21,775 nucleotides of DNA from a virus: IMG/VR virus record IMGVR_UViG_3300006052_000034, positions 1-21,775 of that record. The stretch is one strand, 5' to 3'. The notes below the pieces were generated by a model. The model searched no databases and was not told the DNA's origin. It saw only the letters and a program-made list of their open reading frames with translations. Shown piece after piece: positions 1,959-2,924 of the stretch. How positions within the stretch are numbered: the first letter of the stretch is position 1; every line of letters begins with the position of its first letter. Position numbers and translations under genes: made by a program.

Positions 1959-2068
1959 GCGCTTACGAGGAATTGTTGGCGCGCCCTCTAACGAAAAACC
2001 GCCCGGCTGGGGCTGCCGAGCGGTTCTTGACGAAGCGCATGATTTGCGCCTATCGTATAGATGCCTAG
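1955..2068 (+). CDS. 37-residue hypothetical protein
   Basis: A GTG start overlaps the previous stop (GTGA), and GAGGAA lies at a workable distance upstream. The product, beginning MSAYEELLARPLTKNRP, is basic and 37 residues long. Its last codons contain the promoter at 2027-2056, and its stop codon sits inside the first stem of the structured region that follows. It may be a real small gene or a remnant; coupling is the only strong evidence. Confidence 0.45.
   Translation: MSAYEELLARPLTKNRPAGAAERFLTKRMICAYRIDA
2027..2056 (+). promoter_or_regulatory. Sigma70-like promoter in front of the structured gap
   Basis: A TTGACG -35 box (2027-2032, five of six consensus bases) is followed after 18 bp by TATCGT (2051-2056, four of six). 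The expected start point is close to 2063, which is the first base of a stable hairpin. The fit of promoter, start point and hairpin supports a transcript beginning here rather than a promoter for the gene at 2544 alone. Confidence 0.5.
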
Positions 2069-2543
2069 GGGGTTTGCCGACCCTGGTCTAGGCGAGCCAC
2101 GGAGCAATCGTGACCGACAACCCATATACAGTTTCGCGCATCCGAACGCAAGCCCTAGGGCTGGGCGCATGACGTTCGTCTGTTCGTTCATCCTAACAAA
2201 GGAGGCTTTCGAAGCATCCTAATTCGTCGGCGGTTCCAGAAACTGAGGACGCTGGGGCGAATCAGGCAAAAAGCATCACCAGGGGGCGCGGCAAAGATGC
2301 AGGACTGGTCCGAAAGGCGCGAGGTCCGACCGCTAGAGCGACGCAAAGCTCTGAAAAGTAGGCGCCAAGGCAATCCGCAGCGTCGCGAGATTGCCGCCCG
2401 AAACGACGGCTGGCTCCGGCAAGCAAGATCGGTGAGGGCGTGGGGACTGGCCTTGCTAATTCAGCAGGGCTGGTCGTCCTATGCCCTTACTCAGACCTCA
2501 CCAACAAGCATGAACATAGGAAAATAAGACTGGTAGGGACGAA
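2063..2543 (+). ncRNA. Candidate structured non-coding RNA
   Basis: No credible gene covers this stretch. It holds many stem-loops: GCCTAG 2063-2068 with CTAGGC 2088-2093 plus an inner GGGT/ACCC; CGAACG 2143-2148 with CGTTCG 2173-2178 enclosing the palindrome AGCCCTAGGGCT (2151-2162); GGA-GCTT/AAGC-TCC at 2202-2220, which would hide a perfect AAGGAGG; GCATC 2273-2277 with GATGC 2296-2300; AGAGC 2335-2339 with GCTCT 2348-2352; GGCAATC 2369-2375 with GATTGCC 2389-2395 plus an inner CGC/GCG; and the largest, GGTGAGG 2431-2437 with CCTCACC 2496-2502, enclosing a near-continuous inner stem 2445-2457/2463-2475 with loop AATTC. A promoter at 2027-2056 would start transcription at the first hairpin. 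No U-run terminator is seen, so the 3' end is uncertain and the RNA may run into the gene at 2544. I cannot match it to tRNA, tmRNA, RNase P, SRP RNA or an intron core. A replication origin is an alternative. Confidence 0.5.
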
Positions 2544-2924
2544 GTGGGCATATCGGCGGCAACATTGGAGCGGCTGCTAGCGCTCGAACTTGGGGACAAG
2601 TTGCAGGCGGTTATCCAAATTGTCATCGATAGCCATAAGCGAGAGGTAAATCCCGTGAGACAGGCGATAAACCGAAGATATTATCTTAAAAGTCTTACTA
2701 AGACGTCTGAAAACGTCTTAAATGGTCTTAATAAGACGTCTGAACACGAAAACGGCAAAGTATTCGTCAAAATAGGAACGCCGCAGTGGGCGGCATGGGA
2801 AATCGAGTATCGACGATCTAAGGGCAAAACGCCCCCCGTCGATAAACTGGGAATAGGATGGCACTTCCCGTCAGAATGGCCGCCGAATGGCGCTGGGCTC
2901 GCATCGGCGGAGCCACGGCCATGA
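2544..2924 (+). CDS. Hypothetical phage protein with a C-terminal tryptophan-rich motif
   Basis: A 126-residue product starting at GTG with AGGGA four bases upstream. The C-terminal third (VFVKIGTPQWAAWEIEYRR, then GIGWHFPSEWPP) resembles the ending of many alphaproteobacterial prophage proteins annotated as hypothetical or replication-associated: V-x-x-xTPxWxAWxxxxR, then W-x-FPSxWPP. The N-terminal part (LERLLALELGDKLQAVIQIV) is helical. The middle, residues 50-70, is built from an 11-residue imperfect repeat (LTKTSENVLNG / LNKTSEHENGK) whose DNA carries palindromes. Homologues, as I remember them, often have a longer N-terminal region, so this copy may be shortened where it meets the structured gap. 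No enzymatic motif is visible. Confidence 0.65.
   Translation: MGISAATLERLLALELGDKLQAVIQIVIDSHKREVNPVRQAINRRYYLKSLTKTSENVLNGLNKTSEHENGKVFVKIGTPQWAAWEIEYRRSKGKTPPVDKLGIGWHFPSEWPPNGAGLASAEPRP
2692..2748. repeat. Direct repeat containing GTCTTA-N-TAAGAC palindromes
   Basis: A 24-bp unit at 2692-2715 recurs at 2725-2748 with 22 of 24 bases identical, offset by 33 bp. Each copy contains the 13-bp inverted repeat GTCTTA-N-TAAGAC and the overlapping palindrome AGACGTCT, and a further CGTCTTA lies between them at 2714-2720, pairing with TAAGACG. It lies within a coding frame and preserves it. Operator, replication-initiator site or simple internal duplication are all possible. Confidence 0.6.

What the first reader, a model, noticed from the sequence alone, without database searches (positions are those of the whole stretch)
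2063..2543. A structured, apparently non-coding RNA in the early region
Seen: about 480 bases without a credible gene inside an otherwise gapless block; a promoter (TTGACG, 18 bp, TATCGT at 2027-2056) whose start point falls on the first base of a hairpin; and at least seven stem-loops, including nested ones. Established: several phages carry large ornate non-coding RNAs (for example GOLLD and ROOL), often among small early genes. Inference: this may be such an RNA, or a structured origin. I could not match it to a known class.
Basis: partly seen in the sequence, partly recalled or inferred. Interest (0 to 1): 0.8.

Follow-up and report, generated by a model that had tools for sequence, protein, structure and literature searches.

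The report
Phage RNA with paired repeats
A virus of soil and water bacteria carries a gene for an intricately folded RNA of about 320 letters that makes no protein; the same RNA is found in dozens of other phages, prophages, phage-like islands and plasmids, shows a short sequence twice that is kept identical to itself while changing from phage to phage, and has an unknown job.

Summary
Window 2200-2511 (+ strand) is a structured non-coding RNA; nothing 5' of about 2200 is conserved. A profile built without the window finds it at 2217-2529 (E 3e-43). On 57 diverse homologues from viral contigs, bacterial genomes and plasmids, the fold (including four pseudoknot-type helices) shows overwhelming covariation: in the 137-nt 5' domain 92% of cells pair (shuffled 66%, slid 33-41%), with 547 double-sided changes against 152 +/- 13. 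In several phages and plasmids it stands alone among opposite-strand genes, so it looks like a trans-acting RNA gene. No Rfam family matches the window, but a bridging locus is hit both by my model and by RF02932 (Betaproteobacteria-1, an orphan motif), so this is probably a longer alphaproteobacterial relative of that motif.

New here: conserved GGCUCCG and CUCACCA are each followed by the same 7-8 nt. The sequence varies between RNAs but is identical within each (6.7 of 7 positions; 4.55 +/- 0.15 when copies are swapped). A second RNA class upstream of a related terminase obeys the same rule. No complementary partner and no third copy was found. I infer, weakly, a guide-like or synapsis-like RNA; the function is unproven.

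The parts
2200..2511 (+). Structured non-coding RNA (conserved extent, from the first hairpin to the second repeat copy)
   Evidence: Leave-window-out profile hit 2217-2529, E 3.4e-43; R1 covariance model hit 2271-2404, 73 bits, E 3e-20 (the window is one of the 57 sequences behind R1)
2200..2220 (+). 5' hairpin P0 (AGGA/UCCU, GCUU/AAGC)
   Evidence: Read from the sequence; a GC-rich hairpin stands at this place in many homologues; covariation not tested
2222..2262 (+). P1 hairpin, 2222-2228 with 2256-2262
   Evidence: 81.6% of cells paired, all 7 pairs with two-sided changes
2252..2282 (+). PK0: P1-loop 2252-2255 (CUGG) with 2279-2282 (CCAG)
   Evidence: 96.5% paired, 3 of 4 pairs with two-sided changes
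2273..2300 (+). P2: GCAUC 2273-2277 with GAUGC 2296-2300, pseudoknotted with P3
   Evidence: helix 1: 93% paired, 4 of 4 pairs covary
2288..2333 (+). P3: 2288-2291 (GCGG) with 2330-2333 (CCGC)
   Evidence: helix 2: 97.9% paired
2302..2327 (+). P4: 2302-2306 with 2323-2327, loop carrying GUCCGAAAG
   Evidence: helix 3: 100% paired
2316..2366 (+). PK5: P4 loop GGCGC 2316-2320 with GCGCC 2362-2366
   Evidence: helix 4: 100% paired in 56 distinct sequences, 4 of 5 pairs with two-sided changes
2335..2352 (+). P6 hairpin: AGAGC 2335-2339 with GCUCU 2348-2352
   Evidence: helix 5: 95.5% paired (the window row is one column out of register there)
2340..2384 (+). Kissing helix: P6 loop GACGC 2340-2344 with P7 loop GCGUC 2380-2384
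   Evidence: helices 6-7: 71-93% paired, all 5 pairs with two-sided changes despite a gappy alignment
2369..2395 (+). P7: GGCAAUC 2369-2375 with GAUUGCC 2389-2395
   Evidence: helix 8: 10 of 10 pairs with two-sided changes
2404..2431 (+). P8: CGA 2404-2406 with UCG 2429-2431
   Evidence: 91-94% paired
2436..2486 (+). P9 long hairpin, 2436-2443/2479-2486 and 2445-2449/2471-2475; 3' strand carries the conserved UGGUCGUCCUAUG
   Evidence: 86-90% paired
2412..2426 (+). Conserved GGCUCCG (2412-2418) followed by repeat copy 1, GCAAGCAA (2419-2426)
2497..2511 (+). Conserved CUCACCA (2497-2503) followed by repeat copy 2, ACAAGCAU (2504-2511); positions 2-7 (CAAGCA) identical to copy 1
   Evidence: conservation in the family ends here
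2027..2056 (+). Promoter-like site TTGACG-18-TATCGT, a possible but unproven start of the transcript
   Evidence: lies inside ORF 1955-2068
2544..2924 (+). Gene directly downstream; C-terminal domain shared with a replication-initiation-like protein gene downstream of the RNA in L100
   Evidence: 41% identity over 49 aa, E 7e-8

Best explanation
SHOWN (by sequence): 2200-2511 encodes a compact, multi-pseudoknotted RNA read from the + strand, belonging to a family carried by phages, prophages, capsid-gene islands and plasmids, most or all alphaproteobacterial. INFERRED: it is a stand-alone, trans-acting RNA gene and an accessory factor of mobile elements rather than a leader or an essential part. 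MECHANISM (inference, about 0.3 likely): the 5' pseudoknot domain (P0-P7) is a scaffold, probably bound by a protein, while hairpin P9 holds two arms that each end in the same 7-8 nt word. The two arms bind the same complementary sequence, on one target or on two, so that the RNA works like a guide or a synapsis-forming RNA. Because copy 1 equals the DNA strand at copy 2, the simplest target is the RNA's own 3' flank in DNA, with CUCACCA as a PAM-like marker. The stated confidence is for the identity as a trans-acting structured ncRNA, not for this mechanism.
For: Homology: leave-window-out hit; further copies in genomes and plasmids. Covariation. Strand: 130 G-U against 46 A-C cells. No coding frame. 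Stand-alone: in L148 and L150 the flanking genes are on the other strand, and in plasmids L062 and L137 the next gene is convergent. Accessory: an RNA of class I or II precedes the terminase in 29 of 80 loci and is absent in the rest. Repeat rule: positions 2-7 identical in 94-100% of 49 non-redundant RNAs, positions 9-12 near chance; 6.71 of 7 against 4.55 +/- 0.15 for swapped copies; held in sequences found later and in the second class.
Against: No transcript data. No protein partner is common to all loci. No complement of the repeat in the RNA and no extra copy in flanking phage DNA (16 found, 15.6 expected), so the guide idea has no identified target other than the flank itself. The repeat words are not free: most end in AGCA(G/A). 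About 6 of 57 members lack the repeats. The window's own repeat is short (6-7 nt) and not significant alone.
Confidence: 0.88

Rival explanations
1. Accessory counter-defence (or defence) RNA: a decoy or inhibitor RNA that mobile elements carry against host systems or rival phages; the repeats bind a repeated feature of the target.
For: Occurrence in phages, phage-like islands and plasmids that share no other gene; optional presence at a fixed slot; 5' domain replaced by a different one in class II.
Against: No defence target or partner gene identified; a decoy does not explain why two copies of a drifting word stay identical.
Confidence: 0.2
2. Cis-acting leader or antiterminator (like HK022 put) for the genes downstream, for example the late operon.
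For: Often on the same strand just upstream of the terminase or of replication genes.
Against: Stands alone among opposite-strand genes in L148 and L150 and before convergent genes in two plasmids; very different downstream genes.
Confidence: 0.12
3. DNA packaging RNA (pRNA-like) or cos-associated RNA in place of a small terminase, with the repeat word as end sequence.
For: Directly upstream of the large terminase gene, with no small terminase between, in the 10-kb islands.
Against: 51 of 80 related terminase loci lack it; in phage Shpa it is 5 kb from the terminases, and a small terminase is annotated there; also on mobilizable plasmids with no annotated phage structural genes.
Confidence: 0.08
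4. Replication RNA, such as a primer precursor (ColE1 RNAII-like) or part of an origin.
For: Near primase, helicase or replication-protein genes in many phages; in the terminase islands the slot holds HTH genes that look like initiators in some relatives without the RNA (my reading).
Against: Both plasmids also carry an annotated replication initiator A; iteron-like repeats in the next gene are a better origin candidate in the window.
Confidence: 0.1
5. The repeats act in DNA as recombination crossover cores or are target-site duplications, and the RNA fold is a separate matter.
For: 7-8 bp identical but variable words with sharp borders resemble recombinase overlap regions or target duplications.
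Against: The right flank of copy 2 is not conserved; no member without the hairpin domain between the copies was seen; single insertion duplications would have drifted apart.
Confidence: 0.1
6. Decayed or very small protein gene.
For: Two hypothetical proteins are annotated over the RNA in phage Shpa.
Against: Covariation, indels of all lengths and no conserved frame; no codon signal.
Confidence: 0.01

Closest known systems
Betaproteobacteria-1 RNA (Rfam RF02932)
   Same: Same P1 hairpin with GGuCGGgu...ACggCAGC, the same loop pairing CAG/CUG, P2, and by eye P3; reference members also carry GGCUCCG followed by a word, and one (L305) has a near copy after CACCA. L301 is hit by both models and has a perfect repeat.
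   Different: The window is not hit at E <= 5. The Rfam model spans only 120 nt. Bodies differ: GUCCGAAAG, PK5, the kissing helix and the conserved P9 are features of the alphaproteobacterial RNA.
GOLLD and ROOL RNAs
   Same: Large ornate pseudoknotted RNAs of phages and prophages with unknown function (PMC12286853).
   Different: Half the size or less, no Rfam match, no tRNA gene in the window.
IS110 bridge RNA and OMEGA guide RNAs (HEARO)
   Same: Short words in an RNA that match flanking DNA; structured scaffold (analogy from general knowledge).
   Different: No transposase or IscB/TnpB-like gene common to the loci in the neighbour survey; two identical words rather than target and donor guides; no HEARO match.
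phi29 packaging RNA
   Same: Phage structural RNA; some members lie next to the terminase.
   Different: Different fold; optional; also on plasmids.

Membership tests
Betaproteobacteria-1 RNA (RF02932) | Score at or above the Rfam gathering threshold (49.4 bits) | tested here: not met
   Window: no match up to E 5. Relatives L193 25.7 bits and L301 35.2 bits.
Betaproteobacteria-1 RNA (RF02932) | P1 hairpin and P2 hairpin with a CAG/CUG-type loop contact | tested here: met
   Same elements in A2/A3, with covariation; alignment.
Betaproteobacteria-1 RNA (RF02932) | Common descent shown by a bridging sequence | tested here: met
   L301 = L195 hit by R1 (58 bits, E 8e-16) and by RF02932 (E 7e-5).
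GOLLD / ROOL | Match to the Rfam covariance models | tested here: not met
   window; relatives.
GOLLD / ROOL | Homo-oligomeric nanocage | not testable with these tools
   Needs cryo-EM or mass photometry.
Self-splicing intron (group I or II) | Match to Rfam intron models | tested here: not met
   No match at E <= 5 in the window region.
Guide RNA of an RNA-guided nuclease or recombinase | Adjacent or shared effector gene | tested here: not met
   Neighbour clusters are primase, helicase, terminase, HNH, capsid and connector; none shared by all.
Guide RNA of an RNA-guided nuclease or recombinase | Variable word identical to a DNA target | tested here: inconclusive
   Copy 1 equals copy 2 in the 3' flank, but both may be part of the RNA; no other target.

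The most novel reading that the evidence does not exclude
A family of phage RNAs whose scaffolds can differ (class I, class II, Betaproteobacteria-1) but which share a guide module: two identical 7-8 nt words, each behind a fixed heptamer, that must match each other. It would be an RNA-guided system for recognising or joining DNA, used by phages, phage-like islands and plasmids and unlike known CRISPR, OMEGA, TIGR or bridge RNA systems.
Probability: 0.2. Interest if true: 0.95.

Novelty: new variant of a known kind. Interest (0 to 1): 0.76.

Why it matters
It turns an orphan 120-nt motif into a full-length (about 320 nt), widespread phage RNA with a well-supported pseudoknotted fold, and adds an unusual, testable feature: two short words that must equal each other. 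If they are guides, this is a new RNA-guided principle in mobile elements; if not, the rule still demands an explanation. A cultured phage (Paracoccus phage Shpa) carries it, so the function can be tested now.

Tried and rejected
Direct blastn of the window RNA against phages gave nothing, and against plasmids one hit at E 0.7 that proved real. Blast of the RNA against 397 genomes of the order of Beijerinckia mobilis gave mostly short chance hits, but L067 was real. An L019 match was a protein-coding coincidence. Complement of the repeat by column covariation: none. Third copies in phage DNA: at expectation. Cos-end idea: no further copy of the word near the ends of the Shpa record, and no contig ends at copy 2. 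Plasmid-replicon idea: both plasmids carry replication initiator A. Protein-family search of the downstream gene: no hit in PHROGs or Pfam. The search for a beta-type pattern in viral contigs found none. Literature searches found no description of this RNA; the paper behind the 224 candidate motifs is not held. In the genome searches only 8-16 candidates per genome were scored, so 6 of 385 and 5 of 398 are lower bounds.

Full report
What was claimed.

Checking the observation. Codon scoring trained on the phage's own genes finds no gene-like frame between about 2041 and 2543, while a 37-aa ORF at 1955-2068 scores like a gene. Folding is moderately unusual over the whole stretch (z -2.5); almost all of the signal lies in 2301-2500 (z -3.9, among the three best of about 430 windows of 200 nt). 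The promoter match exists but sits inside the small ORF. Rfam gives no match in the window, and only two weak ones, both on the other strand and at its edge, at E <= 5.

Finding homologues. A near-identical phage contig (60 kb) only repeats the sequence. A weak plasmid hit (E 0.7) in an intergenic stretch of an Agrobacterium pusense plasmid shares GGCTCCG...TGGTCGTCCTATG with the window. That sequence in turn hits a Pseudosulfitobacter plasmid (E 4e-7) and Paracoccus phage Shpa (E 5e-6). Patterns taken from these gave dozens of viral contigs. A profile built without the window finds the window at 2217-2529 with E 3.4e-43; a covariance model of the 5' domain, in whose alignment the window is one of 57 rows, finds it at 2271-2404 and nowhere else in the window. 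The same model finds copies in 6 of 385 genomes of the class and 5 of 398 of the phylum of Beijerinckia mobilis, with at most 8 candidates scored per genome. Conservation begins near a 5' hairpin (2200) and ends at the second repeat (2511); 2063-2200 is not part of the family.

The fold. On 57 non-redundant sequences (56 distinct in the 5' domain), P2, P3, P4, PK5, P6, the P6-P7 kissing helix and P7 pair in 92.3% of cells against 65.8% in shuffles and 33-41% when slid; 36 of 40 pairs have two-sided changes. P4 and PK5 are paired in every sequence. P1, PK0, P8 and P9 are supported separately: 87.5% against 75.4%, 224 double changes against 80 +/- 8. P2 is interleaved with P3, PK5 joins the P4 loop to a downstream strand, the P6 and P7 loops kiss, and PK0 joins the P1 loop to the stretch after P2. 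Sequences were aligned before the structure was drawn, but I chose the structure by looking at them, so the slid controls matter more than the absolute numbers. G-U cells (130) outnumber A-C cells (46) in the 5' domain, as expected if the + strand acts as RNA. Frames and indels do not look coding; two annotated 'hypothetical proteins' of phage Shpa lie on the RNA.

Where it sits. Common settings are after a helicase-primase pair, or between a head-tail adaptor plus a small gene and the large terminase in about 10-kb islands with capsid, portal and integrase genes. The latter resemble capsid-forming satellites or prophage remnants (my reading). In the window and in L100 it precedes a gene with a shared C-terminal domain that in L100 belongs to a replication-initiation-like protein. 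In L148 and L150 the flanking genes are on the opposite strand, and on two plasmids the next gene is convergent. It is optional: among 80 related terminase loci 16 carry this RNA, 13 carry a second class of RNA at the same place, and 51 neither. A stand-alone, trans-acting accessory RNA gene fits best.

The repeat rule. GGCUCCG in the arm before P9 and CUCACCA in the arm after it are each followed by the same short word. In 49 non-redundant RNAs positions 2-7 agree in 94-100%, position 8 in 82%, and positions 9-12 near chance. Own copies agree in 6.71 of 7 positions, swapped copies in 4.55 +/- 0.15; of 18 RNAs whose word is unique in the set, 11 match perfectly and 17 in at least 6. Sequences found later obey it (L187, L188, L301), and so does the second RNA class (L217, L205). 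In RNAs that lack the repeats both heptamers are gone as well, replaced by what look like local hairpins. No part of the RNA covaries as a complement, and neither strand of the flanking phage DNA has more copies than expected. In the window the copies are GCAAGCAA (2419-2426) and ACAAGCAU (2504-2511), six identical in a row; alone this would not be significant.

Known relatives. A relative (L193) matches Rfam RF02932, Betaproteobacteria-1, over the full 120-nt model at 25.7 bits, half the gathering score. Among genomes searched with that family, one locus (L301) is hit by both models and has a perfect repeat after GGCUCCG and CACCA; reference members L298, L305 and L306 carry GGCUCCG as well, and L305 a 6-of-7 second copy after CACCA. 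I conclude that the window RNA and Betaproteobacteria-1 are branches of one superfamily, though the window fails the formal threshold. The literature library held no description of this RNA or of the repeat rule; the paper I believe described the motif is not held, so I cannot say what it notes about function.

How it may work. Shown: an RNA fold under strong selection, on mobile elements, with self-matching words. Inferred: a protein-bound scaffold presenting two identical recognition words. I give a guide-like or synapsis-like mechanism about 0.3; rivals are counter-defence, a replication role, a DNA-level recombination core, a cis-acting leader, and packaging. The decisive test is to change one copy, the other, or both alike in a cultured carrier such as phage Shpa.

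Noticed in passing
window 2690-2748: Two 24-nt iteron-like direct repeats (GTCTTACTAAGACGTCTGAAAACG, spacing 33) with inverted-repeat character in an AT-rich dip inside the replication-protein-like gene 2544-2924: a candidate replication origin.
   Followed up: partly
   Followed up: no
window about 1991-2024, - strand: GC-rich hairpin followed by TTTTTCG on the minus strand, terminator-like by eye; a sub-threshold Rfam Rhizobiales-2 match overlaps it. The terminator scan did not list it.
   Followed up: no
L217:2088-2525, also L201, L204, L205, L208, L211, L215, L219, L220, L221, L224, L225, L230: A second structured RNA class upstream of the same large terminase family, with a different 5' domain, no Rfam match at E <= 1, and the same repeat rule.
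   Followed up: partly
window 2310-2321: Another assembly of the same phage (IMG 3300006086) breaks into two contigs inside the RNA.
   Followed up: no
L138:4990-5385 (Paracoccus phage Shpa gp47 and gp48): Two annotated hypothetical proteins overlie the RNA and are probably misannotations.
   Followed up: partly
L278 and L279, after the primase gene: Where related phages carry the RNA, these have a different stretch of several hundred bases that matches neither RNA profile; not examined further.
   Followed up: no
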